Source: a virus
IMG/VR virus record: IMGVR_UViG_3300042448_001752
Coordinates: 1-64,000 of that record
DNA: 64,000 bases
Reading direction: 5' to 3' (one strand)
The notes beneath the pieces were generated by a model, which saw only the letters and a program-made list of their open reading frames with translations, was not told the DNA's origin and made no database searches. Of this stretch, positions 1-15,982 are shown one piece after another (the first letter of the stretch is position 1; every line of letters begins with the position of its first letter). The position numbers and the translations under genes are program-made.

Positions 1-1799
1 AACGATTTTGAATAAATGGTTTCATTATTTTTATTAATCTCAACATTAACGGTTCTATCATCAATATTATATGTAAAGAAATAAAATACCCATTTATTTT
101 GTGTGTTTAATATTGGTAGTATTGAATAGTATTCTGAGTTAGATGAAACACCTTTACCTGAATTAATTAAGAACGTGTTTTGTTCATTTGTTATGATATT
201 AACGTTGGTATCATTTATTAATTTTTTATAAAAGAAATCCTCTAAAAAGTTTTGGCAATTATTTATTTCACATTCTGATTTATAAATTTCTTTAGTTGTT
301 ATATGTGAAAATTTATTTAAAAAGAAATCGGTTTTAAATGTCATTGCGGTAGTTTCAATACCAACATTAGATGCTGTAGGTAATGTACACAAGAACGCAT
401 CTTTTTCATCCAAAGATTCAAACGATTGATTTACATATTCAATGTCATCATGATGTAATATCACATCGTAGGTTATATAAAATACTTTATTAAAATTAAA
501 ATCTTTAGCGGATTTAAACCCATTAATTAAATTAGTTAAAACAGGTAACGATTGGTTAGTATCTTTTAATCCATTAATATTAATCTCAACATCAAACTCT
601 GGTTTATAATTATAAAACTTAGTATAGTAAGAATGTTCAGTTGTTGGGTTATTTGAATCAAAAATATAATAGTCCACCATTTTTTGAATCTCATCCGATA
701 CTGGATAATGAGAAACCAACATTACTTTTCTACCTAATTTTTTAACTGACTCAATACACTCAACAGTTAATTTTTCACGTGATTTAGTGTTTGGGTAAGT
801 ACCGACAATGACCAATTCATTGTTATCGTACTTTTCCTTACGCGGATTTAAAATAGATAATAAATTAGAAATGTCAGTATCAACATTACCCGTTAAAAAA
901 GTAATATTTTCGTAATTATCATACTTTCCACAATAAACATCAAGATTATACATCATCATAGGAATCCTATACTCTAACGCCTCTTTCAATGCGATTGGAT
1001 TTAGTTCTTTATTATGTCTATCACCTTTTGATGGGAATAGGAATAAATCTGACGCCTCAATAAACGACGGTACATCTTTTCTTTCACTCCAGATAACACA
1101 GTTATCCGGTTTATTATTAATTAAAGGTTCCCAATAAGATTTAAAATTATCCGCCTGATTACCTAAGAAATGAAATTTTATTTTATAATCTTTTAATTTA
1201 TGAGCAATTTCAAAAATATAAGATTGATTTTTTCTTGATGTAAAAAGGCCAACATTTAATACGTGTTTATATGATGGGTCAAAACCGAGCAAATCTTGGT
1301 TTTGTTTTTTATTCTTATCTTTATAGTCGACAGGATATTCAACTATTTCATATGGGATATCATATATCGAATACCTAAAGGCATTAAACGCACTAACAAA
1401 AATAAATTTATCAGGAAACCATCTTTTAGATGACACAGGAAAACTTGAGTCGTGTGTTGTCTCTAATATAGTATAGGCTCTACCCTCTCGATATAATTCT
1501 TTTGTGACAGAGTCATCCATGAAAAATTCAGGGAATTCTTCCATACTAACAACATCAGGTTTAAACTCATTAACAATTCTAATTAACTCGTTTTTATCCT
1601 CCCCTAATGAATGAAAATTATTACCTAACAAATTTTGTATTTGATTTCTTTGGACAACGTAAGACCACGCAACAAATGCGTACTCAACGCACTTAATTTC
1701 ATATTCATCGTTTATTAATTGTATTTTATTTAAAGTTACTTGAGGCGCACCACCAGTGCTTAAATGAGGGGAAATTACTAATATTTTTTTCTTTTCCAT
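1..1799 (-). CDS. Two-domain glycosyltransferase (GT4-like N-terminus, second GT-like domain), partial
   Basis: The reading frame opens at an ATG at 1799 and runs off the left edge without a stop, giving about 599 residues. The N-terminus (ILVISPHLSTGGAPQ, about residues 6-20) matches the start of group 1 (GT4, GT-B fold) glycosyltransferases. Around residues 240-270 the segment FLFPSKGDRHNKELNPIALK contains the GT4 nucleotide-sugar-binding region with spaced acidic residues. From about residue 325 a new domain starts (VIVGTYPNTKSREKL), resembling the first strand and helix of a GT-A enzyme, with a later HHDD that could be a metal site. It probably adds two sugars in succession. Its start lies 2 bases after the stop of the FkbM gene, so it is the last visible member of a minus-strand operon. 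The family assignment of the second half is uncertain. Confidence 0.75.
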   Translation of the reverse strand, partial: MEKKKILVISPHLSTGGAPQVTLNKIQLINDEYEIKCVEYAFVAWSYVVQRNQIQNLLGNNFHSLGEDKNELIRIVNEFKPDVVSMEEFPEFFMDDSVTKELYREGRAYTILETTHDSSFPVSSKRWFPDKFIFVSAFNAFRYSIYDIPYEIVEYPVDYKDKNKKQNQDLLGFDPSYKHVLNVGLFTSRKNQSYIFEIAHKLKDYKIKFHFLGNQADNFKSYWEPLINNKPDNCVIWSERKDVPSFIEASDLFLFPSKGDRHNKELNPIALKEALEYRIPMMMYNLDVYCGKYDNYENITFLTGNVDTDISNLLSILNPRKEKYDNNELVIVGTYPNTKSREKLTVECIESVKKLGRKVMLVSHYPVSDEIQKMVDYYIFDSNNPTTEHSYYTKFYNYKPEFDVEININGLKDTNQSLPVLTNLINGFKSAKDFNFNKVFYITYDVILHHDDIEYVNQSFESLDEKDAFLCTLPTASNVGIETTAMTFKTDFFLNKFSHITTKEIYKSECEINNCQNFLEDFFYKKLINDTNVNIITNEQNTFLINSGKGVSSNSEYYSILPILNTQNKWVFYFFTYNIDDRTVNVEINKNNETIYSKS

Positions 1800-1801
1800 T
1801 G

Positions 1802-2752
1802 TTATATTAAATTGTTGTTATAAGCGTAGATTAATCCAATATCATTAGACCCAAAAGTGTCTTCAATTATAAAGTGGTTTAATTTTAATATTTCAATAAC
1901 CTCATCATAAATTTCTCTTGAGTGGTATTCCATGGCAATCTTACCAACATTGTTTTGTAAGTATTCTTTATTGATAGTACGGAATAAATCTAATTCACCC
2001 CCTTCACAGTCGACTTTTAAGAAATCTATTCGAGGAATATCATAATCAGATATTAATTGATTAATGGTGGTTGTCTCAACAATTTCTTCACCAATAACAC
2101 TTGATGGGCGAAACCCGTTTTTATTTTTTTGTGAAAAATTATTACCATTAACTTCGGTAATCATAAATTTTTCAAAACCGTTTTCACTACTAATTGATTT
2201 ATTAATACAAGTTACATTATATTCTAAAAGATTTTGTTTCATACTCTTAAAGGTTGCTTTTAGAGGTTCAACGGCATAAACTTTTTTTGGATTAAACATT
2301 TGTGAGTATAATGAGAAAACCCCATAATTAGCTCCAATGTCAACAACAACATCATTAATATTAAGTCTAACAAAATCTCTTTCGTATACTTTATCATAAA
2401 AGATTTCTGTGACAATTGGGAATAAATCATCCCCCAAATGAGATAATTTAACTTGTTTTGAGTTAATTACTAAAAATCTATTTTGACCAAATAGTTTTAA
2501 TTCCTGAGAATATTGTAGGTCACCATACATAATTGATAAGGTTATGTTTCTAAGTCTTTTCGCGTTAGATTCACCAGTTGATATCCACCAATTGGTTCCT
2601 TTTTGTAACCCCATGTTTGATTTGTGTACGGTTAACCCCGTATTGTCATCGATAATTGAGACCTCGTATGTTTCTTTTATGTCATCACCATTAAAGTCAA
2701 AATGGATTACGCCATTTTCTTCAATATTAGTTACTGTAAAAATATTATTCAT
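1802..2752 (-). CDS. FkbM-family SAM-dependent methyltransferase
   Basis: A protein of 316 residues with a class I methyltransferase core in its second half. VDIGANYGVFSLYS (about residues 137-150) is the SAM-binding glycine motif, AVEPLK with Glu162 is the acidic ribose-binding position, and FLKVDCEGGE (about 245) is the conserved FkbM signature. FkbM proteins O-methylate sugars or small molecules, so methylation of a glycan made by the neighbouring glycosyltransferases is the likely role. The first 100 or so residues form a separate beta-rich region without a recognisable family and may bind the substrate. It lies between the GT2 stub (1 base upstream) and the two-domain glycosyltransferase (2 bases downstream), which implies co-transcription. 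Family call is confident; substrate is inferred. Confidence 0.85.
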   Translation of the reverse strand: MNNIFTVTNIEENGVIHFDFNGDDIKETYEVSIIDDNTGLTVHKSNMGLQKGTNWWISTGESNAKRLRNITLSIMYGDLQYSQELKLFGQNRFLVINSKQVKLSHLGDDLFPIVTEIFYDKVYERDFVRLNINDVVVDIGANYGVFSLYSQMFNPKKVYAVEPLKATFKSMKQNLLEYNVTCINKSISSENGFEKFMITEVNGNNFSQKNKNGFRPSSVIGEEIVETTTINQLISDYDIPRIDFLKVDCEGGELDLFRTINKEYLQNNVGKIAMEYHSREIYDEVIEILKLNHFIIEDTFGSNDIGLIYAYNNNLI

Positions 2753-2753
2753 A

Positions 2754-2909
2754 TTATATGTGTATAAATTCGTTATGGATTATTTGTTTGTTTAATGTCA
2801 CCTCAACTCTAAATTTTTTGAACTCATTTTTTAAGTTTATCCAAGGACGTAAACACTCATCAATATATTCTTCGGAGTTGTATACCGAAAGTAATATTCC
2901 TATTTTCAT
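2754..2909 (-). pseudogene. Truncated GT2 glycosyltransferase (N-terminal stub, 51 residues)
   Basis: An open frame of 51 residues begins MKIGILLSVYNSEEYIDECL, which is the first beta strand and helix of a GT-A (GT2) glycosyltransferase, where the nucleotide-sugar would bind. A full enzyme needs at least 200 residues, but this one stops at 2754, just before the FkbM start at 2752. After about residue 30 the sequence no longer looks like a GT2. The start overlaps the stop of the GT9 gene as ATGA, so it is probably still translated by coupling. The simplest reading is an internal deletion that removed the catalytic part while the reading frame at the 5' end survived. A short functional peptide cannot be excluded. 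Confidence 0.6.
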
Positions 2910-3847
2910 ATAATTTCTAAAATTTTATTAAACACTTGGTCAACCGATGGATGACATTCAAATGTGGGTTTATTTTCCAAACAATTAATTAATGGAGGCA
3001 CTCCTTGAATATCTCCCCATTCCTTCACCCCATATTTCATATCAGAACCGCAGAACAAACTACACCCACCACCAACATAATGGTATTTATAATCTTGGGA
3101 ACCGTTTCGATACGGAGCTCTAAATTCTTTGTTAATTGAGCTACCTAATTGTAAAATATTAGAATCGGTTGTTCCGGCTAAGTGTAATAAACCCGAATCC
3201 ATTGTGATAAAACACATTGATTTATCAATCAAATGCCATGACTGACTTAATGTTGTTTTATTCATTAGGTTAATTCCGTTTTTGATTTCAAAATTAAAGA
3301 TTGGTTTCTTAACATTAAAAAATCCTACTTCGCTAGATTCTTTTCCTATTGAAACAACACTAATGTTTTGTTCATTTAATCTTTTAGTTAACTCCATCCA
3401 TTTAACCGCATCCCATGTTCTACTTGGCCAGTTTTGTACAGGATGAATTAGTACGTATTTATCAGGTAACTTATTAATTGGTTCGAAAGTGTCGGGAATA
3501 TAATCCAACCCCATCTCATCTTTAGTTAACATAAACCCAAGTTTAATTGCGTGATATTGTCTTATGTCTATTCTATTATGTTTGAACTCAATACCCTTAT
3601 TATTTTTTTGACCATTTTCATAAAATGAATTATGAGATATAAAATTTGAATTTATAAAGTCTCGATTAATTGAACTTGATTGGTATACCTTTTCAACCAA
3701 CGGATTATTCTTAAATAACTCAGGAAAATCTGTTACAACAATAATTTTTGAGTTATACGAGTCATATAATTTTCTAAGGACAGGTGTGGAACATAAAGTA
3801 TCCCCAATGGCCTTTGCTTCTGTTAAATCAAGACATATTTTTTTCAT
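2906..3847 (-). CDS. GT9-like (heptosyltransferase family) glycosyltransferase
   Basis: A protein of 313 residues with the layout of the GT9 (ADP-heptose LPS heptosyltransferase) family, GT-B fold. GDTLCSTPVLRKL near residues 16-28 is the N-terminal acceptor-side motif. YVLIHPVQNWPSRTW near 131-145 is the start of the C-terminal domain, with the family's Pro/Ser-Arg-Trp pattern. ITMDSGLLHLAGT near 214-226 matches the donor-binding TxDSGxxHLA motif. Phage members usually transfer a sugar other than heptose, so the donor is unknown. It is the first gene of the minus-strand glycan operon, and its stop overlaps the ATG of the GT2 stub by 4 bases. A 91-base divergent region separates it from the mucin-like gene. 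Confidence 0.75.
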   Translation of the reverse strand: MKKICLDLTEAKAIGDTLCSTPVLRKLYDSYNSKIIVVTDFPELFKNNPLVEKVYQSSSINRDFINSNFISHNSFYENGQKNNKGIEFKHNRIDIRQYHAIKLGFMLTKDEMGLDYIPDTFEPINKLPDKYVLIHPVQNWPSRTWDAVKWMELTKRLNEQNISVVSIGKESSEVGFFNVKKPIFNFEIKNGINLMNKTTLSQSWHLIDKSMCFITMDSGLLHLAGTTDSNILQLGSSINKEFRAPYRNGSQDYKYHYVGGGCSLFCGSDMKYGVKEWGDIQGVPPLINCLENKPTFECHPSVDQVFNKILEII

Positions 3848-3938
3848 ATGTAAAATATAAAATAAAAAGGGATAAAATACAGATTAAAGTTTGTTTACTT
3901 CACTTTAAGGTAAATGAATTTTCATAGTATTTATTGTA
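3848..3938. promoter_or_regulatory. Divergent intergenic region between the GT9 operon and the mucin-like gene
   Basis: This 91-base AT-rich stretch separates two outward-facing transcription units, so it should contain both promoters. On the plus strand TATTTATTG starts at 3928, only a few bases before the ATG at 3939, and matches the motif found before other structural genes here. No comparable motif is visible toward the minus-strand gene, only A/T tracts. No Shine-Dalgarno-like sequence precedes either start. Confidence 0.4.
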
Positions 3939-6900
3939 ATGACGAGTCTTGTAATAACTAGTTTGAGTGGGGTTGGCCCTTTTACCGTAACATTATGCGA
4001 TATAACTAACACGTATTGTTATATTGTTGCGACTAATGTAACAACCACTCCATTACTAGTTAATATACCAATACAGTTAACCAATGTTCAACAAATATTG
4101 GTTAATGTTACCGATTCCTATAATTGCGTTGATTTACAATTATATAGTTGCCCTGAACCAACACCAACATCAACAATAACCCCAACACCAACACAAACCT
4201 TAGGGGGATGTAATTGTATTACATTTACAAACTCAACACTGTTTAACCTTAATTTTGGGTTAGCCGAATGTAACGGAATTATATTATCGTCAGTAATAAA
4301 TCCTGGTGTAACTTTGTATTATTGTGGACAATCCCCATATGGGGATGTAGGTGTCGGTATTAATGTTGGTAATATTTGTATTAATACATGTTATCCACCG
4401 ACAAATACTCCTACACCAACAAATACACCAACATCTGTAACACCAACACCTACACCAACTAACACACCTACACAAACTGAAACTCCAACAAATACGCCAA
4501 CTAACACCCAAACGCCAACTAACACGCCAACTTCAACTGAAACTCCAACTAATACCCCAACTAATACACCTACACCAACACCAACTGAAACTCCGACTGA
4601 AACTCCGACTGAAACTCCGACAAATACACCAACTGAAACACCAACACCAACTGAAACACCAACACCAACTGAAACACCATCCCAAACACCTACACAAACA
4701 CCGACTAACACACCAACAAACACACCAACACCAGGATTATCACCAACCACAACCCCAACTAACACTCAAACACCAACAAATACACCAACAAATACAGTAA
4801 CACCAACTAACACTCCAACTCCAACCCAAACACCGACAAATACACCAACACCAGGATTATCACCAACCACAACCCCAACTAACACTCAAACTCCAACCCA
4901 AACACCAACAAATACAGTAACACCAACTAACACTTCAAGTCCAACCCAAACACCGACAAATACACCAACACCAGGATTATCACCAACCACAACCCCAACT
5001 AACACTCCAACACCAACTGAAACACCAACAAATACCCCAACGCCAACTGAAACGCCAACAAATACCCCAACTGAAACGCCAACAAATACCCCAACTGAAA
5101 CGCCAACTGAAACGCCAACTAACACTCCTACCCCAACAAACACACCAACGCCAGGATTATCACCAACCACAACCCCAACTAACACTCCAACTCCAACCCA
5201 AACACCAACAAATACACCAACAAATACAGTAACACCAACTAACACTCCAACTCCAACCCAAACACCGACAAATACACCAACAAGTACACCGACGGTAACT
5301 CCGACAAATACTCCAACTAAAACTCCGACAAATACTCCTACCCCAACAAATACAGTAACACCAGGATTATCACCAACCACAACCCCAACTAACACCCCAA
5401 CACCTACATCAACCCAAACACCAACAAATACCCCAACCCAAACACCTACCAACACACCAACAAATACCCAAACTCCAACAAATACCACAACCCAAACACC
5501 TACCAACACGCCGACAAATACTCCAACTCAAACACCAACACCAGGATTATCACCAACCACAACCTCAACTAACACTCCAACACCAACTGAAACTCCAACT
5601 AAAACGCCGACAAATACTCCAACAAGTACTCCAACTGAAACTCCAACTAACACACCTACACAAACTCCAACAAATACAGTAACACCAACAAATACAGTAA
5701 CACCAACAAATACTCCTACGACAACAAATACAGTAACACCAACAAATACTGTAACCCCAACAAATACAGTAACACCAACTAAAACTCCGACAAATACACC
5801 AACTAAAACACCAACTAAAACCCCAACTAAAACTCCAACCCAAACTCCAACACCAACTAAAACTCCAACCCAAACCCAAACTCCAACCCAAACTCCAACT
5901 CCTACATCAACGTATATTCCGTCTTGGGACTGTAATGGTATTTATTGTTTTGACCCAGGTGATGGTACAGGATATTTCTCTACATTTGAAGAGTGTGACA
6001 GTATATGTAACACTTATGATTGTGTCGAGGGTAATTGTGAACAAAATTTCACTGGTGAGGGAGAATATGTTGGTATAATTGAGTGTTTAACTTTTTGTTT
6101 ACCAACACCAACTCCAACCCAAACACCAACTAATACTCCAACAAATACTCCAACGCCAACTGAAACACCAACTAATACTCCAACAAATACTCCAACGCCA
6201 ACTCAAACACCAACGACAACTGAAACGCCAACCCAAACGCCAACCCAAACGCCAACTAACACTTCAACACCAACTAACACTCCAACACCAACTGAAACGC
6301 CAACCCAAACGCCAACTAACACTTCAACACCAACTAACACTCCAACACCAACTGAAACACCAACTAATACTCCAACAAATACTCCAACGCCAACCCAAAC
6401 ACCAACTAACACTCCAACGCCAACTAACACTCCAACACCAACTGAAACGCCAACCCAAACACCAACAAACACTCCAACACCAACTAATACTCCAACACCA
6501 ACTGAAACTCCAACCCAAACACCAACAAATACCCCAACACCAACTGAAACGCCAACAAATACCCCAACACCAACTGAAACGCCAACAAATACTCCAACTG
6601 AAACACCAACTGAAACGCCAACAAATACTCCAACTGAAACACCAACTAACACTCCAACCCAAACTAACACACCAAGTCCAACTGAAACTCCAACAAATAC
6701 TCCAACTGAAACACCAACAAATACTCCTACCCCAACTGAAACTCCAACAAATACCCCAACTGAAACTCCAACAAATACTCCAACTGAAACTCCAACAAAT
6801 ACGCCCACCCCAACTGAAACTCCAACAAATACCCCAACTGAAACTCCAACAAATACTCCAACTGAAACTCCGACCCAAACTCCGACCCAAACACCAACTG

Positions 6901-9203
6901 AAACTCCGACAAATACTCCAACTGAAACTCCAACAAATACGCCCACACCAACTAACACGCCAACACCAACAGTTACGCCAACACCAACTAACACTCCAAC
7001 ACCAACTGAAACGCCAACAAATACCCCAACTGAAACACCAACAAATACTCCAACTGAAACACCAACAAATACTCCAACTGAAACGCCAACAAATACTCCA
7101 ACTGAAACTCCAACAAATACTCCAACTGAAACCCCAACAAATACTCCAACAAATACTCCAACTGAAACTCCAACTAACACTCCAACCCCAACTGAAACTC
7201 CAACAAATACTCCAACTGAAACGCCAACTAACACTCCAACCCAAACTGAAACACCAACAAATACGCCAACAAATACTCCAACGCCAACTAACACTCCAAC
7301 CCCAACTGAAACACCAACAAATACCCCAACTAACACTCCAACACCAACTCAAACGCCTACACCAACTAACACTCCGACACCAACAGTCACACTTGGGTTA
7401 ACTCCAACACCAACAAATACTTCAACCCCGACAAATACTATAACGCCAACAAATACCCCTACAACAACAAATACTCCAACCCAAACACCGACTAACACCC
7501 CAACCCCAACAAATACACCAACCCAAACATCAACTAACACCCCAACCCAAACTAACACTCCGACAAATACTCCAACTCAAACTCCAACAAATACTCCAAC
7601 AAATACTCTAACACCAACACCAACAAATACACCAACAAATACAACAACAAATACACCAACAAATACTGTGACTCCAACCCAAACACCAACTAACACTCCA
7701 ACCCAAACACCAACTAACACTCCAACACCAACAAATACACCAACTCAAACACCGACAAATACTCCGACAAATACTGTAACTAACACCCAAACACCAACAA
7801 ATACACCAACAAATACACCAACTCAAACACCAACTGAAACTCCAACAAATACTCCGACAAATACTGTAACTAACACCCAAACACCAACAAATACGCCAAC
7901 AAATACTGTGACTAACACCCCAACTGAAACTCCAACAAATACGCCAACCCAAACTAACACTCCAACTAATACTGTAACACCAACAGTTACACCAACATCA
8001 CCGCCAGAATTACCAATTTATACTGGTGAAACTGTTTGTGATATTCCATATAACATTAACACAGGGATTACAGGTTCTTGGCAGATTACAGTTCAGTTAG
8101 GTTCGTATACGGGAACCGTTGCCTGTACTTTTAATGCATATCAGGTACCAGATAAGTTCCAAGTTTTTTGGGATGGGAATTTGGTTATTGATACAGGGTT
8201 TAGGGGTAACGCCATTTTTAATTCACAATTAAATGCCTTAGGATATCCAAGTGTTGTAGGTACAGGTTTTGTTACTGCTTCTTGGACTAAATTAACAGCG
8301 TTTCCTGATTTCGCAACAGTTGTGGTTACCGCTCCTATTGATTCAACTAGATTTTATTTTAAATTGGGTTGTCCGGCTGTAACACCAACACCAACGGTAA
8401 CCCCAACCCACACACCAGCACCAACAAATACCCCAACTAATACTCCAACACCTACACCTTTACCGATAATACCACTATGTTCTGTATTAATTAATGGGGG
8501 TACTGACGTATCCGCCTATTTTCCATCATCAAATACTAACGTATTGTTAGGTAATTCTTTTACTTTTTCCCCAGATATTGCACATACAACAACTAAACTA
8601 TGGTTGTATGATGGGACAATTCTAGAATATGACATAACATTAAGTCCTTGGTCGGCAACGTTCAACAGAACTATCGAATACCCTTTAGGTGTTAATTTAG
8701 GGAATGGTTTAGGCTCCATTACCAACACTGAGTTAATCTCAACAGACGATACAGTAACACCTAATCAAATAATTGTTTTAGATATTACCACAAGTACCGC
8801 AGTCTCAACTGTAATTGGAACACTAGGGGTTGGTAGGTATGTTTCGGGTGATATTTTATTAACAACTACAAATAAAATATTAGTTACTAATGAAGGTAAT
8901 GATGGAGTATTCCTTAGTCAATATAGTTATCCGTCAGGTACTTTTGAAGTTGAGGTCGATATTACGTCAACCACAAGCCAACCGTATGGTTTATTTATTG
9001 ATAGTGGTAATATATATGTTTGTAACAGTGGTGGTGAAATATATAATGTTGATGTTAACTTCCCATACACACAAACATTATCTAATATCTCAGGATTATT
9101 TGTTGGAGGAGCATCTCAAGTACCAAGTTGTTGTGATACTAACCTAAACTTACCACCAACTCCTACACCAACAAATACTCCAACACCTACACCAATCGCA
9201 TAA
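3939..9203 (+). CDS. Giant Thr/Pro-rich mucin-like virion surface protein
   Basis: A protein of 1754 residues. Residues about 1-75 form a small beta-rich domain ([11 protein letters not shown]), followed by a Cys-containing globular segment to about 150. Two long tracts (about 152-658 and 721-1353) are built from four-residue units X-Thr-Pro-Thr, with X mostly Asn, Glu, Pro or Gln, so that every second residue is Thr. Between them sits a Cys-rich module (about 663-720) made of two tandem copies. Two globular domains follow (about 1355-1480 and 1512-1735), joined by short Thr/Pro linkers; the last looks like beta-propeller blades. The composition is that of a mucin or stalk: extended, rigid and rich in potential O-glycosylation sites. 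Glycosyltransferase operons lie on both sides, so it is the obvious candidate substrate. Attachment to the virion is inferred. There are no frameshifts across more than 5 kb, so it is under selection. Confidence 0.85.
4394..5913 (+). repeat. Thr/Pro coding repeat tract 1, with six higher-order PGLSPTTT blocks
   Basis: The 12-base unit encoding X-Thr-Pro-Thr is repeated throughout, with varied Thr codons. On top of it, a block beginning ccaggattatcaccaacc (Pro-Gly-Leu-Ser-Pro-Thr-Thr-Thr) starts at 4731, 4851, 4971, 5151, 5361 and 5541. The spacings are 120, 120, 180, 210 and 180 bases, all multiples of 30. The first three blocks are nearly identical over their full 120 bases, which points to recent duplication by recombination or slippage. 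All changes preserve the reading frame. Confidence 0.9.
6101..7998 (+). repeat. Thr/Pro coding repeat tract 2
   Basis: This second low-complexity tract has the same 12-base X-Thr-Pro-Thr unit but is dominated by Glu-Thr-Pro-Thr-Asn-Thr-Pro-Thr pairs (24-base unit). A duplicated 60-base segment is visible near 6237-6356. It lacks the PGLSPTTT blocks apart from one degenerate copy near 7388 (Leu-Gly-Leu-Thr). Long antisense open frames in this region are by-products of the periodic composition. Confidence 0.9.
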
Positions 9204-9291: not shown

Positions 9292-10539
9292 ATGAAAATA
9301 TTTGTTCAGATAGCCTCTTATCGTGACCCCCAACTTATCCCAACAATCAAATCAATGTTGGAGAATGCCAAAAACCCAAAAAATTTAGTAATCGGAATTT
9401 GTCGTCAATACCATCCTGAGGATGGGTTTGATGATTTATCAGAATATGCTAAAGATAAACGATTTAGAGTTATTGATGTTTTATATTCTGACGCTAAAGG
9501 AGTTTGTTGGGCAAGAAACCAAGTTCAACAATTATATAAAGGCGAAGAATATACCCTACAAATAGACTCCCATATGAGATTTGAAAAATATTGGGACGAC
9601 ACCTTAATCAAAATGGTTAAACAACTTCAAAAGAAAGGATTTGAGAAACCTTTATTAACAGGATACGTATCTTCATTTGACCCGGACAATGACCCGGAAG
9701 GCAGAGTTACGGTACCTTGGAGAATGGCTTTTGATAGATTCATTCCTGAAGGGGCGGTATTCTTTTTACCTGAAACAATTCCTGGATGGGAAACCCTTAA
9801 AGAACCGGTTACTTCACGATTTTATTCTGCCCATATGGCATTCACTCTTGGTCAATTTAGTGTTGAAGTTCAACACGACCCTGAATTTTATTTTCACGGA
9901 GAAGAGATATCAATCGCCGTTAGAGCATTCACTCACGGATATGATTTATTCCACCCACATAAAGTTGTGATTTGGCACGAATACACCCGTAAAGGTAGAA
10001 CAAAACAATGGGACGACGATAAAGAGTGGGGAAAGAAAAATGAATTATCCCATAAAAAAAATCGTCAACTATTTGGTATGGATGGTGAAGAGGTAACAAT
10101 GGATTTTAGTTATTATGGATTTGGAACCGAAAGAACTTTAAAAGACTATGAGATTTATTCAGGTCTTAGATTTTCAAATAGAGCCGCACAACAATATACT
10201 TTAGATAAACATTACGCACCTAATCCAACAATTTATGAAACTGAAGAAGAATGGTTAGCAAGTTACGCCACTATTTTTAAACATTGTATTGATGTTGGTT
10301 TTACTCAAGTTCCAGAAAATGACTATGATTTTTGGGCGGTAATTTTTGAGGGTAGTAATGGTAATGAGTTATATAGGAAAGATGCGGATAAGGAAGAAAT
10401 TAATCGATTAAAATCTGACAAAGATGGATATTGTAAAATATGGAGAGATTTTCAAACAACTGAGAAACCAAATAAATGGATTGTATGGCCACATAGTGAG
10501 TCTAAAGGTTGGTGTGAGATAATAACAGGTAACTTATAA
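9292..10539 (+). CDS. GT60-like polypeptide GlcNAc transferase (PF11397 family)
   Basis: A protein of 415 residues. The first 120 match the GlcNAc (PF11397/GT60) family closely: IFVQIASYRDPQLIPTIKSM at the N-terminus, the strand with IGICRQYH, the segment GVCWARNQVQQLY, and QIDSHMRF near 94-101, where Asp-Ser-His replaces the usual DxD metal motif. Further conserved segments include FYSAHMAFTLGQF and YFHGEEISIAVRAFTHGYD near 195-220. Eukaryotic members attach alpha-GlcNAc to hydroxyproline of Skp1 or to Thr of mucin-like proteins. It is the first gene after the Thr/Pro mucin-like protein and heads a tight plus-strand operon (the next start is 2 bases downstream). Family call is strong; that its acceptor is the phage mucin is an inference. 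Confidence 0.85.
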   Translation: MKIFVQIASYRDPQLIPTIKSMLENAKNPKNLVIGICRQYHPEDGFDDLSEYAKDKRFRVIDVLYSDAKGVCWARNQVQQLYKGEEYTLQIDSHMRFEKYWDDTLIKMVKQLQKKGFEKPLLTGYVSSFDPDNDPEGRVTVPWRMAFDRFIPEGAVFFLPETIPGWETLKEPVTSRFYSAHMAFTLGQFSVEVQHDPEFYFHGEEISIAVRAFTHGYDLFHPHKVVIWHEYTRKGRTKQWDDDKEWGKKNELSHKKNRQLFGMDGEEVTMDFSYYGFGTERTLKDYEIYSGLRFSNRAAQQYTLDKHYAPNPTIYETEEEWLASYATIFKHCIDVGFTQVPENDYDFWAVIFEGSNGNELYRKDADKEEINRLKSDKDGYCKIWRDFQTTEKPNKWIVWPHSESKGWCEIITGNL

Positions 10540-10541: not shown

Positions 10542-11390
10542 ATGGTTAAAATTTACGATGAATATGATTCATATTTAGAGGGAGGACATTTTTCATCACC
10601 AAGAAAAAATTTGGGGAATAAATTGTTTATATATTCCGCTTGTAGAATAATTAGTGAACTATTAGGGTATGAGTTAATATCTCCCGAAAACGCGTTAGTA
10701 AGAAGAGAAGATACCGAAAATGGACAATATAAAGAAATCCTATTCCCATTTAAAGGTGTTAAAGGAAATATTGTGGATGACCCAATTAAAGTTATTCAAG
10801 ATGGCGACATCATACAATTAGGTAGTATTGAAAATTTAATACAATCCTACCCAAATCATGGATTTTTAAATCAATCATATTTTTCAAAATATGATTACAT
10901 TAAACCATATAAGACTAAGGTTAAAGAATATTTTAAAAGTATCGTTAAAGATAAAAGGGTTGGTAACGATTTAGTAATTATGTTAAGAAGTAGTAATTAC
11001 GACGGAAGTTTTGTTTTACCCGACAGTTATTACCTTAATATTATATCTCAAGAAACTTTTGATAATTTATATATTTCATTTGACCATATAAACAAACATC
11101 AATCATTAATTAATAAATTAGAGAAATATAACCCTAAATTAATTGATGGTGATATACTTGAAGTTTTTTCAGAAATCACATCATTTAATACAATAATCGC
11201 CGCTCAAGGAACATTTTCTTTTTGGGCTTGTTTTTTATCTAACGCCAATAAAATATATTGGCCGATTACCAATGATGGTCCAAATTCCGGTAAAAACTCA
11301 AATAACCCCGTGTTTAACTCATATGTTAATTTAACGGTCGATGATGAACCAAGATATGAATTAATAAACGTAACAGATATATACAAATGA
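10542..11390 (+). CDS. GT11-like (fucosyltransferase-fold) glycosyltransferase
   Basis: A protein of 282 residues. The N-terminal LGNKLFIYSACRIISELLGY (about residues 24-43) resembles the GT11 start, where LGNQLFQYAFAR precedes a helix. Near the C-terminus, IIAAQGTFSFWACFLSNANK (about 226-245) resembles the GT11 donor-binding segment containing S-x-F-S-W-W-A-x-x-L. These two anchors in the right order suggest an alpha-1,2-fucosyltransferase-like GT-B enzyme. The sugar and linkage cannot be read from the sequence. It starts 2 bases after the GlcNAc transferase stop and overlaps the next gene by 4 bases, so it belongs to the same operon. The match is remote, so another GT-B family is possible. 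Confidence 0.5.
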   Translation: MVKIYDEYDSYLEGGHFSSPRKNLGNKLFIYSACRIISELLGYELISPENALVRREDTENGQYKEILFPFKGVKGNIVDDPIKVIQDGDIIQLGSIENLIQSYPNHGFLNQSYFSKYDYIKPYKTKVKEYFKSIVKDKRVGNDLVIMLRSSNYDGSFVLPDSYYLNIISQETFDNLYISFDHINKHQSLINKLEKYNPKLIDGDILEVFSEITSFNTIIAAQGTFSFWACFLSNANKIYWPITNDGPNSGKNSNNPVFNSYVNLTVDDEPRYELINVTDIYK

Positions 11391-12067
11391 TAAAAACAAT
11401 CAATTTTAGTCTTTTTGGTACTGAAATGAAGTATTACATGGGAGCCGAAAAAAATGTTATAATTAATAAAGAATTATTACCAGATTGGACAACCGTAATA
11501 TATTACCATCCTCAAAACATAATTCAAGGTTATGTCGAAAAACTGTCTTCATTAGGTGCGACAATGGTGGATGTGTCAAATATAAAGTTAGGTGATAAAG
11601 AATCAATTCACTTCCCATATTTTTGGAGATTTCTTTCATTTTTACAAGACAGTCCCTCAATAGTTAGAGATTTGGACAGTAGAATTTCTGAAAGAGAAGT
11701 AAAATATATTAGAAAATGGGAAGAAACAAATAAAGATTATTTTATTATCCGAGACCATCCGTGGCATGCACCCGTACCAAGTGGGTTATTTGGTATTAAG
11801 AAAAAAATAGAAGAGTTTGAAAAACACTTTATTGAGTTTGTTAATATTGATGAGTTACGTTGGGGGTCCGACCAAGAAATTTTAAGAATTTATATGGAAA
11901 ATATTAGTGACGAAAATGTGTTTTATTGTGGTTACGATATTCAAACCAATTATATACATAGAGACGATAAAACTTTTTTTATTGGAATGCAAATGAATGA
12001 AAATGATGAACCAACAGTCCCAAGTGGCGTACAGTGTTTAAATTACCTAAACGAAATAAATTTATAA
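11387..12067 (+). CDS. Putative glycosyltransferase with RDLDSR motif
   Basis: A protein of 226 residues. Its central segment IVRDLDSRISEREVKYIRKW (about residues 87-106), followed by IIRDHPWHAPVPSGLFGIKK, matches a conserved pattern that I recall from bacterial and viral proteins annotated as polysaccharide-modifying. In that pattern DxDSR could act like a DxD metal-nucleotide motif and the RDHPxH segment like a substrate loop. GSDQEILRIYM near 160 resembles the late acidic helix of GT-A enzymes. A glycosyltransferase role is inferred from this and from the operon (4-base ATGA overlap with the previous gene, next start 1 base downstream). No precise family is claimed. Confidence 0.5.
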   Translation: MIKTINFSLFGTEMKYYMGAEKNVIINKELLPDWTTVIYYHPQNIIQGYVEKLSSLGATMVDVSNIKLGDKESIHFPYFWRFLSFLQDSPSIVRDLDSRISEREVKYIRKWEETNKDYFIIRDHPWHAPVPSGLFGIKKKIEEFEKHFIEFVNIDELRWGSDQEILRIYMENISDENVFYCGYDIQTNYIHRDDKTFFIGMQMNENDEPTVPSGVQCLNYLNEINL

Positions 12068-12068
12068 A

Positions 12069-12830
12069 ATGAAGTATTGTTTTACAACTTTGGCTGTTGG
12101 TGAGCCATATGAAGAATTAACCGCAAAGTTATACACAAGTTTAAGAGATAAAACTCAAAACTGTGAATTTTTTATAACAACAAATAACCCTAACTTCCCT
12201 GATTTAGGTGAAAAAATTCACATTAATAGAGAGTCATTACAAAGTCTACACGATTCTAAAGGTGGGTTTAGTTTTCATTTAAATTATAAGTGTTTATCAA
12301 TTAAACACGTTTTGTCTAATGAAAAACAAATGTTAGCGTTAGACACAGAATTTAAAAAATTTGATTACGTAATCTTTACTGACGGTGATTGGATTTTGGA
12401 AAGCGGGTTTTCTGAAGAGAAGATTTTAAATATGTTAAATTATATGGAAACCGAAGGATTTGATTTTGCATTTGAAAGACCTGCAAGTATCGGTGATGGT
12501 AGACGAGACCCTGAAAATAGTTTCTATAGAGATAAAATTTATGATTATGATATATTAGAATATGATAAATGGGATGAGGCTCACGTTGTTAATGAACAAT
12601 GTTTGGTATTTAAAAATAATTATAAATTTAGATTTTTTGCCCAAAGATGGGAACAATTTTTATGGTATTCAATCCATAATGATATTAGAAACTACCCTGA
12701 CGGTTTTGAGATTGGGGTATCGGCTTTAGAAGCAGGGATGAAATGGAACTACAATGGAGTGTTTAATCACTTTTTACAAGGATGTTTCGGATTTTATACT
12801 AAACTTGGTGATTATCACATTAGATTTTAA
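12069..12830 (+). CDS. GT-A-like glycosyltransferase
   Basis: A protein of 253 residues with the order of elements of a nucleotide-diphospho-sugar transferase. A beta strand (YCFTTLAVGEPYEELTAKLY) is followed by a helix, a second strand (CEFFITTNNPNF), a long region, and VIFTDGDWILESG (about 99-111), where TDGDW supplies a DxD-type metal motif. VVNEQCLVFKNN and FEIGVSALEAGM later in the protein fit the acceptor or catalytic side. The early strand, DxD and late acidic helix suggest GT-A, but I cannot name a CAZy family. It sits in the middle of the plus-strand glycan operon, 1 base after the preceding stop. Confidence 0.55.
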   Translation: MKYCFTTLAVGEPYEELTAKLYTSLRDKTQNCEFFITTNNPNFPDLGEKIHINRESLQSLHDSKGGFSFHLNYKCLSIKHVLSNEKQMLALDTEFKKFDYVIFTDGDWILESGFSEEKILNMLNYMETEGFDFAFERPASIGDGRRDPENSFYRDKIYDYDILEYDKWDEAHVVNEQCLVFKNNYKFRFFAQRWEQFLWYSIHNDIRNYPDGFEIGVSALEAGMKWNYNGVFNHFLQGCFGFYTKLGDYHIRF

Positions 12831-12845
12831 TTATATATATATATT

Positions 12846-13382
12846 ATGTCACACAAAGAACAACAAGATTTCCTAACGTATGTTAGAGACAAATTCCCAA
12901 ATAAATTTGAGAATTGTAGAGTTTTAGATATCGGCTCATTAGATATCAATGGTAATAACAGGTATTTGTTTACAAATTACGAATACATCGGACTAGATAT
13001 TGGTGAAGGAAACAACGTAGATGTTGTATGTAGAGGTCACGAATATAATGATGAAAAATTATTTGACGTAATTGTGTCTTCAGAATGTTTTGAACACGAT
13101 GAATTTTGGGAATTAACAATAAAGAAAGGTATCGATTTACTTAAACCAGATGGCGTGTTTTTATTTACTTGCGCCACAACAGGTAGACCGGAACACGGAA
13201 CAAAAAGAACATCACCAAGCGATAGTCCATTTACTTCAAGTTTAGAAAACAATTATTATCGAAATTTAGAAGAAGATGATATTCGACAATCAATTAATGT
13301 TGATGAAATATTTTCAGAATATGAATTTCAAAGTAGACTAAATTGGCCACAAGATTTGTATTTTTGGGGTATTAAAAAATAA
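12846..13382 (+). CDS. Class I SAM-dependent methyltransferase
   Basis: A compact methyltransferase of 178 residues. CRVLDIGSLDINGNNRYLF (about 24-42) is motif I, YIGLDIGEGNNVDVV with the acidic residue at the end of strand 2 is motif II, FDVIVSSECFEHDEFW (about 75-90) matches motif IV and post-IV, and LLKPDGVFLFTCATTGR (about 99-115) is motif V/VI. This is the Methyltransf_11/23 layout. A short AT dinucleotide run (tatatatata) precedes its ATG after the previous stop. Given the neighbours it probably methylates a sugar. An amino acid or other target cannot be excluded. Confidence 0.75.
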   Translation: MSHKEQQDFLTYVRDKFPNKFENCRVLDIGSLDINGNNRYLFTNYEYIGLDIGEGNNVDVVCRGHEYNDEKLFDVIVSSECFEHDEFWELTIKKGIDLLKPDGVFLFTCATTGRPEHGTKRTSPSDSPFTSSLENNYYRNLEEDDIRQSINVDEIFSEYEFQSRLNWPQDLYFWGIKK

Positions 13383-13385
13383 AAT

Positions 13386-14309
13386 ATGAAATCAAAAATT
13401 GTAACGGCTTATTGGATGGATGTTGAGGGGTATCCATTTCAAGGAGTACTTCCAGTTAGAAAAATAAGATATCAAGGTTCTTTAATTTCTCATTGTACTG
13501 GTAGTGGACTACCGGTTATTTGCTATACTCATAGTAAAAATTATGACGAACTTAATGATATTAAAGTAAAGTATAATTTAACTAATTTAGAGTTGAAAAT
13601 ATTAGAATTATCTGATGTAAAATATCACGCTGAAATTGAAATGATTAGAAATAATAATTTTGATACCGATTTGGATGGTAGAGGTCCTGAAATAATGTGG
13701 GGAAAATTTGATGTGTTAGAAAGAGAACTTGACGGATTTGATAGGGTTTATTGGGTGGATGTTGGTTTACAACACCCGGGCATATTCCCTTGGATGTACT
13801 CTAAAGTTCACAATGAGAATTCTGAAAATTTAGGCGTACCAACAAATTGGTGGGCTCATTTAGATGTGTTTAATTTTTCAAAATTAATTGATAGTGAAGT
13901 GTATGATAAATTAAATAAAATCTGTGAAAATAAAATAATGTTTGTTTGTTCATATGGTCCTCAAATAAGTTATCCGTTTTTAAATTATGGAATATTAAAC
14001 AAATCGTTTGAATCTCCATACCCGGTTGGTGGTATGTTTGGTGGAGATGTTCAAGTATTAAAGAAATATATAAATTTATTTTGGGAATTCACTGAGAAAA
14101 TTTTAGAAAAAAACTTACTTTGTACTGAAGAAGTAATTATGAAACCGTCCTACGATTTAATTGATAACGATGAAAAGGTTACACTTATGTTTAACGCGTT
14201 TGCGTCTGGGGAACACGATGATTATCACTACACTATGTGGAATGAAGGAAAAAATACACCAAAACCTTTCTATATGATGTGGCACAATATAAAAAATTTT
14301 AAAATATGA
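13386..14309 (+). CDS. YibB/HtrL-like glycosyltransferase
   Basis: A protein of 307 residues. KIVTAYWMDVEG at the start, FDRVYWVDVGLQHPGIFP (about 118-135, a V-D-x-G metal-site-like motif), GMFGGDVQVLKKY (about 217-229) and LLCTEEVIMKPSY (about 246-258) give the pattern of the WlaTC/HtrL (YibB) glycosyltransferase family: a hydrophobic strand followed by D-x-G and a downstream glycine loop with an acidic TEE. The next gene has the same elements (MFWIDAGL, GFFGGKK, GTEESLF), so the two are paralogues. The stop overlaps the next start by 4 bases. Family assignment is by motif pattern only. Confidence 0.5.
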   Translation: MKSKIVTAYWMDVEGYPFQGVLPVRKIRYQGSLISHCTGSGLPVICYTHSKNYDELNDIKVKYNLTNLELKILELSDVKYHAEIEMIRNNNFDTDLDGRGPEIMWGKFDVLERELDGFDRVYWVDVGLQHPGIFPWMYSKVHNENSENLGVPTNWWAHLDVFNFSKLIDSEVYDKLNKICENKIMFVCSYGPQISYPFLNYGILNKSFESPYPVGGMFGGDVQVLKKYINLFWEFTEKILEKNLLCTEEVIMKPSYDLIDNDEKVTLMFNAFASGEHDDYHYTMWNEGKNTPKPFYMMWHNIKNFKI

Positions 14310-15982
14310 ATAAAATAACATTAGTAACCGGTTTATGGGATTTAGGTAGAGATAAACTCACCGAAGGGTGGTCTCGGACATATCAACATTATTTAGATAA
14401 ATTTCAACAACTTTTACAAGTTGATGTAAATATGATAATTTTTGGTGATGAGGAATTAGAAAAATTTGTTTCAGAGAATAGACGTAATGAAAATACACAA
14501 TTTGTTCGCAGAGAGTTATCTTGGTTTAAAAATAATGATTTTTATGATAAAATACAAAAGATAAGAACCAATCCTGATTGGTATAATCAAGTTGGTTGGT
14601 TAACAGAGTCAACTCAAGCTAAACTAGAGATGTATAACCCTTTAGTTATGTCTAAAATTTATCTTTTACACGACGCAAAAATTTTAGATAAGTTTAATTC
14701 AGAATATATGTTTTGGATTGACGCGGGATTAACAAATACAATTCACCCTGGATATTTTACAAGTGATAAGGTTTTAGATAAACTACCTAAGTTAGTTAAG
14801 AATTTCCATTTTGTTTGTTTTCCTTATGAAACAACTAGTGAGATTCACGGATTTAAATATCAAGAGTTATGTGAATTAGCAGGAAAACCTGTTAATATGG
14901 TTGCAAGAGCAGGATTCTTTGGTGGAAAAAAAGATTTTATTTCTGAAATAAATAGTTTATACTATGGATTAATGAACGATACATTATCCCAAGGATTGAT
15001 GGGAACTGAAGAGTCGTTATTTACAATTATGACATACAAATACCCTAATTTAATTACTTATTCTGAAATTGAAGGTAATGGGTTAATGGGTAAATTTTTT
15101 GAGGATTTAAAAGATATGACAGTTGAGGTAAAATCGGAAGTATCAAAAGATGTTGTTGTTAATAATTTGGACACATCAAAAGTTGGATTATACGTGATTA
15201 CTTTTAACTCACCAAAACAATTGGAGGTTCTTATTCAGTCAATGTTAGATTACGATAAAGATTTTGTAGAGAAACCAAAGAAATTCTTATTAGATAATTC
15301 AACTGATTTATCAACAACACCAAGATATCTTGAACTATGTGAACAATATGGTTTTGAACATATTAAAAAAAATAATATAGGTATTGTTGGTGGTAGAGTA
15401 TTTGTTGCCGAACATTTTGATGAAACTGATTTGGATTTTTATTATTGGTTTGAAGATGACATGTCATTTTATCCTAAAAAGAATGAAGTTTGTAGAAATG
15501 GTTTTCCTCGTTTTGTGGGTAACTTATATCAAAAATCATTAGAGATTATTCAAAAAGAAAATTTTGATTTTTTAAAATTAAATTTTAGTGAATTTTACGG
15601 CTCAAACGATATTCAATTCTCATGGTATAATGTGCCCCAAGATTTCAGACAAAAACATTGGCCAAACAATCCTAAATTACCTGTACAAGGATTAGACACC
15701 AATTCCCCCAAAACAAAATTTGATGAAATACATATTCACAAAGGATTACCATATGTATTGGGTGAGATTTTTTTATGTAATTGGCCAATTGTATTAACAA
15801 AAGAGGGTAATTATAAATGTTATTTAGAGACAAAATGGGCTCACCCTCACGAACAGGTACTAATGAGTTATTCTTATCAAGAAACGGTTAAAGGTAATAT
15901 TAAACCGGGATTACTGTTATTAACACCAACAGAACACAATCGATTTGACCATTATGACGGCTCATTAAGAAAAGAAAGTTAG
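14306..15982 (+). CDS. Two-domain glycosyltransferase (YibB-like plus GT-A-like)
   Basis: A protein of 558 residues with two parts. Residues 1 to about 280 look like a YibB/HtrL-type glycosyltransferase: ITLVTGLWDLGRD, EYMFWIDAGLTN (about 129-140), ARAGFFGGKKDF and GLMGTEESLFTIM. Residues about 290-558 begin again with a strand-helix pair (GLYVITFNSPKQLEVLIQSM) and contain YYWFEDDMSFYP (about 389-400), where FEDDM is the metal-binding position of GT2-like enzymes, and later YKCYLETKWAHPHEQVL. This suggests a bifunctional enzyme that adds two sugars. It is the last gene of the plus-strand glycan operon. The convergent HNH relic overlaps its stop codon. Confidence 0.6.
   Translation: MNKITLVTGLWDLGRDKLTEGWSRTYQHYLDKFQQLLQVDVNMIIFGDEELEKFVSENRRNENTQFVRRELSWFKNNDFYDKIQKIRTNPDWYNQVGWLTESTQAKLEMYNPLVMSKIYLLHDAKILDKFNSEYMFWIDAGLTNTIHPGYFTSDKVLDKLPKLVKNFHFVCFPYETTSEIHGFKYQELCELAGKPVNMVARAGFFGGKKDFISEINSLYYGLMNDTLSQGLMGTEESLFTIMTYKYPNLITYSEIEGNGLMGKFFEDLKDMTVEVKSEVSKDVVVNNLDTSKVGLYVITFNSPKQLEVLIQSMLDYDKDFVEKPKKFLLDNSTDLSTTPRYLELCEQYGFEHIKKNNIGIVGGRVFVAEHFDETDLDFYYWFEDDMSFYPKKNEVCRNGFPRFVGNLYQKSLEIIQKENFDFLKLNFSEFYGSNDIQFSWYNVPQDFRQKHWPNNPKLPVQGLDTNSPKTKFDEIHIHKGLPYVLGEIFLCNWPIVLTKEGNYKCYLETKWAHPHEQVLMSYSYQETVKGNIKPGLLLLTPTEHNRFDHYDGSLRKES

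What the first reader, a model, noticed from the sequence alone, without database searches (positions are those of the whole stretch)
1..15982. Phage glycan island wrapped around a mucin-like protein: a candidate virion O-glycosylation system
At least eight intact glycosyltransferase-like genes and two methyltransferases flank, on both sides, a 1754-residue protein whose tracts have Thr at every second position, alternating with Pro, Asn, Glu and Gln. The GT set contains chain-elongation types (GT9-like, GT11-like, GT-A-like) as well as a GT60-like enzyme that in eukaryotes acts on Thr or hydroxyproline of proteins. The arrangement fits a phage that builds O-glycans on its own mucin-like appendage. 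Such dense coats could hide it from host defences or bind host surface lectins. What is seen is the gene order and composition; the enzyme-substrate link is inferred.
Basis: partly seen in the sequence, partly recalled or inferred. Interest (0 to 1): 0.87.

Follow-up and report, generated by a model that had tools for sequence, protein, structure and literature searches.

The report
Phage glycosyltransferase beside its mucin-like protein
A large bacterial virus carries an enzyme of the type that starts sugar chains on mucins, directly beside a huge threonine-rich mucin-like protein, and the pairing recurs in many related viruses, so these viruses probably sugar-coat their own tail proteins.

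Summary
Window 3939-9203 encodes a 1754-aa protein with Thr at nearly every second position (314 of 316 in aa 723-1354). Directly downstream, 9292-10539 encodes a GT60-type polypeptide HexNAc-transferase: PF11397 at 238 bits, cut-off 21; the best solved-structure matches of its model are mucin-type ppGalNAc-transferases. In relatives the gene before GT60 carries a Thr/Pro tract in 71 of 80 loci (30 of 36 clusters), against 46 of 441 other slots. Loci found through the mucin's N-terminal module encode GT60 within the stretch held in 67 of 72 judgeable cases. In tracts of GT60-bearing phages, Thr codons change almost only silently (235 silent, 6 replacing, 12 pairs); Pro codons do not (49, 35). 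XacN1, an isolated phage with homologous GT60 and HtrL-type genes, is reported to have glycoproteins (PMC5852040). Corrections: five, not eight, GT genes have profile support; GT60 also stands beside short tract-less module proteins; some tract-bearing records lack GT60. New variant of a known kind: a phage-encoded mucin-type O-glycosylation system.

The parts
3..1799 (-). GT1-type glycosyltransferase (599 aa, runs off the record's first base); peripheral, variable part of the island
   Evidence: PF00534 E 3.2e-11; homologues in 7 of 35 other cluster representatives
1802..2752 (-). FkbM-type methyltransferase; possible O-methyl capping of sugars (inferred)
   Evidence: PF05050 E 6.9e-18; 5 of 35 representatives
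2906..3847 (-). GT9 (heptosyltransferase-type) glycosyltransferase; possible chain elongation (inferred)
   Evidence: PF01075 E 4.1e-15; 6 of 35 representatives. XacN1 also has a GT9 gene, ORF328, near its GT60, but the two GT9 proteins do not match each other at E 1e-5
3939..9203 (+). Mucin-like protein, 1754 aa: N-terminal module, Thr/Pro tracts, C-terminal domain; proposed acceptor
   Evidence: homologous N-module before GT60 in relatives
3939..4397 (+). N-terminal module (about aa 1-153; two small Cys-containing beta domains joined by a short T/P linker)
   Evidence: alignment of 17 with 21 invariant columns, ten of them Cys; AF2 pLDDT 83.9, pTM 0.44, two well-predicted domains; no significant solved-structure match
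4401..8000 (+). Thr/Pro tract region (interrupted, e.g. by a Cys-rich stretch at aa 660-722)
   Evidence: codon tests
8460..9158 (+). C-terminal domain (aa 1508-1740), 75% identical over 230 aa to a domain of an SprB-repeat protein of the same record (77,982-81,269)
   Evidence: SprB PF13573 E 8.5e-18 in that protein
9292..10539 (+). GT60-type polypeptide HexNAc-transferase (415 aa), proposed initiating enzyme; D92-S93-H94 invariant
   Evidence: PF11397 238 bits; phrog_24687 E 7.6e-168; alignment of 31; fold
10542..11390 (+). Weak GT11-like gene; rare in relatives
   Evidence: PF01531 E 0.0056, below cut-off; phrog_2644 E 1.3e-4; 1 of 35
11387..12067 (+). Unidentified; GT assignment unproven
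   Evidence: no GT family; 2 of 35
12069..12830 (+). Unidentified; GT assignment unproven
   Evidence: no GT family; 3 of 35
12846..13382 (+). SAM-dependent methyltransferase
   Evidence: PF13489 E 5.5e-8; phrog_32762 E 2.5e-53; 2 of 35
13386..14309 (+). Possible HtrL-like gene; related to XacN1 ORF332
   Evidence: 28.6% identity to XacN1 ORF332; 7 of 35; weak match to 14306-15982, E 0.006
14306..15982 (+). HtrL_YibB-domain protein (558 aa), second conserved member of the cassette; probable elongating GT (inferred)
   Evidence: PF09612 E 5e-17; homologue in 34 of 35 representatives with XacN1 ORF330 as query, 31 of 35 with the window protein; 41% identical to XacN1 ORF330
16140..16802 (+). Conserved 220-aa protein with Thr/Pro tail; second candidate acceptor bordering the cassette
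   Evidence: homologue in 35 of 35 representatives; T/S/P-rich stretch in 32 of 41 family members; no match in 50,697 phage records
32933..36268 (+). Tail sheath with an internal Thr-rich insert; further candidate acceptor on the virion
   Evidence: phrog_23 E 1.4e-53; Thr-rich stretch in 73 of 78 relatives, taking the first plus-strand ORF of at least 800 aa in each locus as the sheath

Best explanation
The island is a phage-encoded, cytoplasmic mucin-type O-glycosylation system. The GT60-type enzyme (9292-10539) most likely transfers a HexNAc from a host UDP-sugar to Thr hydroxyls in the Thr/Pro tracts of the mucin-like protein encoded directly upstream, and probably also of the conserved tract protein at 16140-16802, the tail sheath and other tail proteins. 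The HtrL_YibB-type protein, conserved with it, probably extends the sugar, and a changing set of GTs and methyltransferases diversifies the chain ends. The mucin-like protein is probably a tail-attached, modular adhesin: N-terminal module, glycosylated stalk of variable length, exchangeable C-terminal domain. Shown here: gene order, enzyme family and fold, recurrence across relatives, and selection on Thr. Inferred: catalysis, the sugar, the acceptor, the order of action, virion location, and the benefit (stiff, protease-resistant stalk; surface shielding or receptor reach).
For: PF11397 238 bits vs cut-off 21. CAZy GT60 is described as the pp-alphaGlcNAc-transferase family recognised in Dictyostelium and T. 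cruzi, where mucin-type O-glycans start with GlcNAc (PMC8724618, passages). AF2 model pLDDT 90.8; Foldseek's first 23 PDB matches are ppGalNAc-Ts; VIA-align's first 29 entries are GalNAc-Ts, Z 19.0-21.8, next entry 17.1. GT60 is preceded by a tract gene in 71 of 80 loci, 30 of 36 clusters; other slots within ten genes 46 of 441 in the cluster representatives (summed by hand). N-module loci: GT60 in 67 of 72 judgeable loci, 64 of them within 350 bp. Thr codons in tracts: 88 silent/8 replacing, 93/3 and 82/0 in three pairs, against 44/110 and 50/108 in a neutral simulation at p=0.1; over 12 GT60-positive pairs Thr 235/6, Pro 49/35, other 32/93. XacN1 encodes homologues of GT60 and HtrL plus a GT9 gene, has PT segments in a 3313-aa protein next to a baseplate wedge gene, and is reported to have at least two glycoproteins by proteomic analysis (PMC5852040). 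GT60-less records rarely hold HtrL (1 of 17). In the bacterial genome collection GT60-like genes also lie near T/P-tract ORFs: 13 of 291 slots within two genes vs 3 of 588 farther (P 9e-5).
Against: No glycan, activity or virion location has been measured. In several relatives (L360, L362, L366, L369-L373) the gene before GT60 is a 69-98 aa N-module without tract, so the tract is not the constant partner; and only 17 of 36 upstream proteins matched a pattern for the N-module, some being cut at their start. In the 14 XacN1-like loci no gene next to GT60 has a tract, and L299, whose GT60 is 72% identical to the window's, has none in the stretch held. Tract-bearing records without PF11397 exist (54 of 77; 3 of 12 at 100 kb or more). 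Two pairs from GT60-less records also conserve Thr (66/2), and there Pro equally (26/1), so Thr constraint is not specific to GT60. In one direction of one pair Pro is also well kept (window to L004 26/3; reverse 26/11). The +-2-gene grouping was chosen after seeing the data; for immediate neighbours P is 0.011, the ORFs are not verified genes, and some contigs (L392 by eye) may be viral.
Confidence: 0.77

Rival explanations
1. The GT60 enzyme is a polypeptide glycosyltransferase, but its constant substrate is the N-terminal module (or another tail protein), and the Thr/Pro tracts are ordinary flexible linkers that happen to sit in the same protein.
For: Short 69-98 aa N-module proteins without tract still stand directly before GT60 in eight loci. 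Tracts also occur in records without GT60.
Against: Thr in the tracts is far more constrained than Pro in GT60-bearing phages (235/6 vs 49/35), the reverse of what a mere linker needs. Of the eight short-form records, six have at least one TPTxTPT pattern somewhere (one of them, G108, a single one), and five of the seven short-form loci examined have a tract gene starting 3-5 kb downstream (L366 has one upstream, L371 none). Bacterial GT60s were found without any N-module query and lie near tract ORFs.
Confidence: 0.1
2. The GTs act on host surface glycans, LPS or phage DNA (superinfection exclusion, serotype change or DNA protection), and the mucin-like protein is an unrelated adhesin.
For: GT9, GT1 and HtrL_YibB are families with surface-glycan members (family names; HtrL's link to LPS core loci is recalled); DNA glucosylation and serotype change are roles reported for phage GTs (PMC12619734, passages).
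Against: The GT60 enzyme has the fold of polypeptide HexNAc-transferases and mostly stands behind the mucin-type gene. Peripheral GTs vary from phage to phage while GT60 and HtrL stay. XacN1 is reported to have glycoproteins (PMC5852040).
Confidence: 0.08
3. Coincidence of a tail-adhesin hot spot: the tracts and the GTs are both common near tail-fibre genes in this lineage and share no biochemistry.
For: Tracts are frequent in this lineage in general (13 of 13 long sheath-bearing records, of which 7 have GT60; 12 of 66 ORFs of this record).
Against: Position -1 is tract-bearing in 30 of 36 cluster representatives, other slots in 46 of 441; a similar neighbourhood in the bacterial collection; more divergent GT60s (L301, L302, near-duplicates; L302 43% identical to the window's) again have a tract gene at -1.
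Confidence: 0.05

Closest known systems
Eukaryotic GT60 pathway: UDP-GlcNAc:polypeptide alpha-GlcNAc-transferases of Dictyostelium and Trypanosoma cruzi, with their mucins (PMC8724618, passages)
   Same: Same enzyme family by Pfam PF11397 (that PF11397 corresponds to CAZy GT60 is recalled), Thr/Pro-rich acceptor-type protein, Thr far commoner than Ser in the tracts (583 vs 14).
   Different: Encoded by a phage, beside a single mucin-like gene, in a cell without ER or Golgi; donor sugar and activity untested.
Xanthomonas phage XacN1 glycoproteins (PMC5852040, passages)
   Same: GT60 homologue ORF334 (48% identity) and HtrL_YibB homologue ORF330 (41%), a GT9 gene ORF328, PT segments in a very large protein beside a baseplate wedge gene; authors report at least two glycoproteins by proteomics and suggest the phage GTs.
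   Different: GT60 is not next to the tract gene; tracts are short; ORF325 and ORF330 are not named in the main text, and the passages seen do not say which proteins are glycoproteins.
Mycobacteriophage capsid and tail-tube glycosylation (Freeman et al. 2023; not held, known from a passage in PMC12619734 and recall)
   Same: Phage virion proteins carry glycans, with a proposed shielding role.
   Different: Glycans at C-termini of capsid and tail-tube subunits; no mucin-like carrier in the passage seen.
Moraphages (PMC12619734, passages), jumbo phages of Bacteroidota with four core putative GT groups
   Same: Aquatic, large phages, mostly predicted to infect Bacteroidota, with several conserved GTs; may overlap with relatives seen here.
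   Different: The passages read assign no mucin-like partner; whether any of those GTs is GT60 was not tested.
Animal ppGalNAc-transferases (GT27)
   Same: Fold of the catalytic domain.
   Different: 10-18% identity in the Foldseek list; likeness to their lectin domain was not established.

Membership tests
GT60 / PF11397 polypeptide HexNAc-transferase | Profile match above curated cut-off | tested here: met
   238.2 bits vs 21
GT60 / PF11397 polypeptide HexNAc-transferase | GT-A fold of the mucin-type polypeptide HexNAc-transferases | tested here: met
   AF2 pLDDT 90.8; Foldseek and VIA-align top ranks all GalNAc-Ts
GT60 / PF11397 polypeptide HexNAc-transferase | Metal-binding DxH/DxD motif conserved | tested here: met
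   D92-S93-H94 invariant in 31 sequences; that this is the metal motif is recalled from GT27 enzymes, not shown by a call
GT60 / PF11397 polypeptide HexNAc-transferase | Transfer of alpha-HexNAc from UDP-sugar to Thr or hydroxyproline of a polypeptide | not testable with these tools
   needs biochemistry
Mucin-like protein | Long Thr/Ser- and Pro-rich tracts | tested here: met
   1144 aa of tract with 583 Thr and 289 Pro
Mucin-like protein | Selection to keep the hydroxyl residues | tested here: met
   also seen in two GT60-less pairs
Mucin-like protein | Dense O-glycans on the tracts | not testable with these tools
   needs mass spectrometry
Phage virion glycosylation system | Acceptor is a virion protein | tested here: inconclusive
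   C-terminal domain shared with an SprB-repeat protein encoded downstream of the baseplate wedge gene among long genes without PHROG names; no proteomics for this phage
Phage virion glycosylation system | GT and acceptor genes linked across phages | tested here: met
   71 of 80, 67 of 72 judgeable; not adjacent in 14 XacN1-like loci
Phage DNA-glucosylation enzyme | DNA-base glycosyltransferase family or base-hypermodification genes nearby | not tested
   no search for base-modification genes was made; searches list no DNA GT family for the island's proteins

The most novel reading that the evidence does not exclude
GT60-type enzymes and Thr/Pro mucin-like proteins form a general mucin-type O-glycosylation system of bacteria and their phages, working in the cytoplasm without a lipid carrier or oligosaccharyltransferase, from which phages build sugar-coated tail adhesins of freely variable stalk length; the eukaryotic GT60 mucin pathway would then have bacterial or viral relatives with the same enzyme-acceptor logic.
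Probability: 0.4. Interest if true: 0.9.

Novelty: new variant of a known kind. Interest (0 to 1): 0.82.

Why it matters
Mucin-type O-glycosylation is, as I recall, treated as a eukaryotic pathway. Here a virus of bacteria carries the initiating enzyme type and a cognate-looking mucin as one genetic unit, repeated over most of 36 phage GT60 clusters, with selection keeping Thr in the tracts. It gives a directly testable enzyme-acceptor pair (one enzyme, one peptide, in E. coli K-12), a candidate gene basis for the glycoproteins reported in XacN1, and a possible tool for making mucin-type glycoproteins in bacteria. It also points to a coat that could affect receptor reach, protease resistance or immune visibility of phage tails.

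Tried and rejected
Rejected: 'eight intact GTs' (five profile-supported). Rejected: tracts as DNA microsatellite noise (all four Thr codons used; Thr constraint). Considered and lowered: the tract itself as the constant partner of GT60, because of tract-less short N-module forms. phmmer of GT60 against solved structures gave only weak matches to T7-type RNA polymerases (best E 0.034), taken as chance. Foldseek of the N-module gave nothing at E 0.001; the second-ranked hit, Bacillus Ena1C, E 0.34, was not pursued. HtrL protein: no solved relative by sequence at E 1. p16140: no match in the phage collection. The sheath of isolated phages is only distantly related (best row 32% over 65%), so host and taxonomy rest on SprB repeats and on close bacterial GT60s in Bacteroidota MAGs (67-69%), an inference. 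Literature: searches (20 of 149 listed; 5 of 5; 10 of 10; 4 of 4; 15 of 56; 20 of 31; 15 of 282; 5 of 5); no listed title or abstract start describes a GT60-type enzyme with a mucin-like protein in a phage; the library holds open-licence papers only, and beyond the listings I saw passages of PMC12619734, PMC5852040 and PMC8724618. GT60 relatives: 80 of 349 kept; bacterial ones 80 of 169. In one search, 12 of 144 GT60-positive candidate pairs and 2 of 8 GT60-less ones were used (one pair per locus, ORFs up to 8 kb, at least five changed Thr codons); two of the 12 (L022/L312, L023/L034) are near-duplicates and some others come from related phages. The N-module and GT60 searches share many contigs.


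Full report
What is there. The window is bases 1-64,000 of a 95,473-base virus record. Searches show a large contractile-tailed phage with T4-like features: DNA polymerase at 22670, helicases at 28552 and 57449, a 1111-aa tail sheath at 32933, ribonucleotide reductase at 59798, baseplate wedge at 62794, and a protein with SprB repeats downstream. The 1754-aa ORF at 3939-9203 has 657 Thr and 335 Pro; its tracts cover 1144 residues with 583 Thr and only 14 Ser. In aa 723-1354, 314 of 316 T-phase positions are Thr; in aa 167-659 the figure is 94%.

The enzyme. The gene at 9292-10539 begins after an 88-base gap behind the mucin-like gene. It matches PF11397 at 238 bits (cut-off 21) and phrog_24687 at 7.6e-168. 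CAZy GT60 is described as the polypeptide alpha-GlcNAc-transferase family recognised in Dictyostelium and T. cruzi, for mucin-type glycans (PMC8724618, passages). An alignment of 31 phage proteins keeps D92-S93-H94 and W228-H229-E230-Y231 invariant. The AF2 model has mean pLDDT 90.8. Foldseek's first 23 PDB matches are ppGalNAc-transferases. VIA-align's first 29 entries are GalNAc-transferases with Z 19.0-21.8 over 261-309 residues, followed at 17.1 by SpsA. A shared fold does not prove the reaction, but family and fold agree.

Linkage in other phages. The GT60 query found 349 relatives in IMG/VR, of which 80 loci were kept. A tract here means at least 30 residues covered by 30-residue windows with 12 or more Thr+Ser and 4 or more Pro. 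The ORF directly upstream carries one in 71 of 80 loci, or 30 of 36 clusters at 95% identity. All other slots within ten genes of the cluster representatives give 46 of 441 (summed by hand). Of the 36 upstream proteins, 17 matched a pattern for a shared N-terminal module; some others are cut at their start and some begin differently. The module's alignment of 17 has 21 invariant columns, ten of them Cys. It is followed by a tract of very different length and by C-terminal parts that by eye differ from phage to phage. Searching with that module gave 80 loci. Eight are cut before the end of the gene. Of the other 72, 67 encode GT60 in the stretch held, 64 of them within 350 bases; five do not. 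The records of three of the eight cut loci hold PF11397; those of the five GT60-less loci do not. The contigs of the two searches overlap, so they are not independent.

The cassette. With XacN1 or window proteins as queries, the HtrL_YibB-type gene is found in 34 of 35 representatives (31 of 35 with the window protein) and the 16140-16802 protein in 35 of 35, whereas GT1, GT9, the two methyltransferases, the GT11-like gene and the unidentified genes are found in 1 to 7 of 35 (some loci are cut by contig ends, so these are lower bounds). HtrL_YibB is found in only 1 of 17 GT60-less records. So the constant core is GT60, the HtrL type and p16140; the rest is variable. This is what one would expect of a conserved initiator and extender with changing chain ends, but the order of action is inferred.

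Selection on threonine. Thr (ACN) and Pro (CCN) codons are both fourfold degenerate, so without selection both should show about twice as many replacing as silent changes. A neutral simulation through the same pipeline gave Thr 44/110 and 50/108, Pro 22/43 and 23/45 (silent/replacing, p=0.1). The real tracts gave Thr 88/8, 93/3 and 82/0 in three pairs (window to L004, window to L006, L005 to L006), while Pro gave 26/3, 12/17 and 12/14, and other residues 9/29, 14/35 and 12/28; read the other way round, L004 to window gives Thr 90/2, Pro 26/11 and L006 to window Thr 93/4, Pro 12/10. Over 12 GT60-positive pairs the sums are Thr 235/6, Pro 49/35 and other 32/93 (two of these pairs are near-duplicates, and the tract genes are not all at position -1). 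A stiff linker would need Pro; what is kept most is Thr. A result against a GT60-specific reading: two pairs from records without a GT60 match give Thr 66/2 and Pro 26/1. Those records are 6.5-56 kb long, so they may be fragments of GT60-bearing phages or may use another enzyme.

Results against the simple form of the story. (a) In eight loci the gene before GT60 is an N-module of 69-98 aa with no tract; six of their eight records have at least one TPTxTPT pattern, one of them a single one. The three without are G045, G067 and G076; G045 and G076 carry GT2-type genes, a family found in all 14 control genomes too, and G067 ends in an HtrL_YibB match. (c) Among 13 long sheath-bearing records, seven hold PF11397 and all 13 hold the tract pattern. 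(d) In the 14 XacN1-like loci (L286-L298, L300) GT60 is not next to a tract gene, though six of them have a tract five to eight genes away; L299, whose GT60 is 72% identical to the window's, has none in the stretch held.

An isolated phage. Only 3 of 50,697 phage records hold a GT60 homologue at E 1e-5: XacN1, CM1 and RAS14. XacN1 has GT60 (ORF334, 48% identity), an HtrL_YibB protein (ORF330, 41%), a GT9 gene (ORF328) and, beside a baseplate wedge gene, a 3313-aa protein with PT segments. Its authors report at least two glycoproteins by proteomic analysis and suggest the phage GTs as their source (PMC5852040, passages). Which proteins these are is in a supplement that could not be read.

Bacteria. 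The GT60 alignment found 169 relatives in the bacterial and archaeal genome collection, 80 kept. With a strict Thr/Pro criterion, tract ORFs lie within two genes of GT60 in 13 of 291 slots against 3 of 588 farther away (Fisher P 9e-5; grouping chosen after seeing the data). For immediate neighbours it is 7 of 151 against 9 of 728, P 0.011. The ORFs are stop-to-stop frames, not verified genes, and some contigs may be viral (L392 by eye). Examples are a Saprospiraceae MAG (L384) and Jiulongibacter sediminis (L389), both with the tract gene divergent from GT60. This hints at a wider bacterial system.

Virion location. The C-terminal domain of the mucin-like protein is 75% identical over 230 residues to a domain of the SprB-repeat protein at 77,982-81,269 of the record, which lies downstream of the baseplate wedge gene among long genes that mostly have no PHROG match. 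The tail sheath has a Thr-rich insert, as do 73 of 78 relatives. A tail attachment is likely but not shown.

Verdict. It is a new variant of a known kind: glycoproteins in phages and GT60 mucin glycosylation in protists are both known, but the linked enzyme and mucin in a bacterial virus was in none of the listings seen.

Noticed in passing
window 19151-20227: A phage gene with a strong match to LCIB/C-type beta-carbonic anhydrases (PF18599 E 3e-29), with homologues in 10 of 35 related loci; an unusual auxiliary gene for a phage.
   Followed up: no
record 87,133-90,627 (L003:8634-12128, minus strand): A second mucin-like protein of 1164 aa with about 600 aa of Thr/Pro tract; its non-repeat parts have no significant match to the four non-tract parts of the first that were compared.
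   Followed up: partly
window 32933-36268 and L086-L165: The tail sheath (1111 aa; T4's is about 660, recalled) carries a Thr-rich insert, also seen in 73 of 78 relatives.
   Followed up: partly
L360, L362, L366, L369-L373: Very short (69-98 aa) N-module proteins without tract stand directly before GT60 and HtrL genes; their role is unexplained.
   Followed up: partly
record G040 (locus L192): Two neighbouring GT60-type genes in one phage record.
   Followed up: no
window 16850-19123: 757-aa protein with Asn-rich N-N-x-I-G-type repeats beside the cassette, in 3 of 35 relatives.
   Followed up: no
L003:16385-16972: By eye a cysteine-synthase-like gene at the record's right end; no profile search made.
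   Followed up: no
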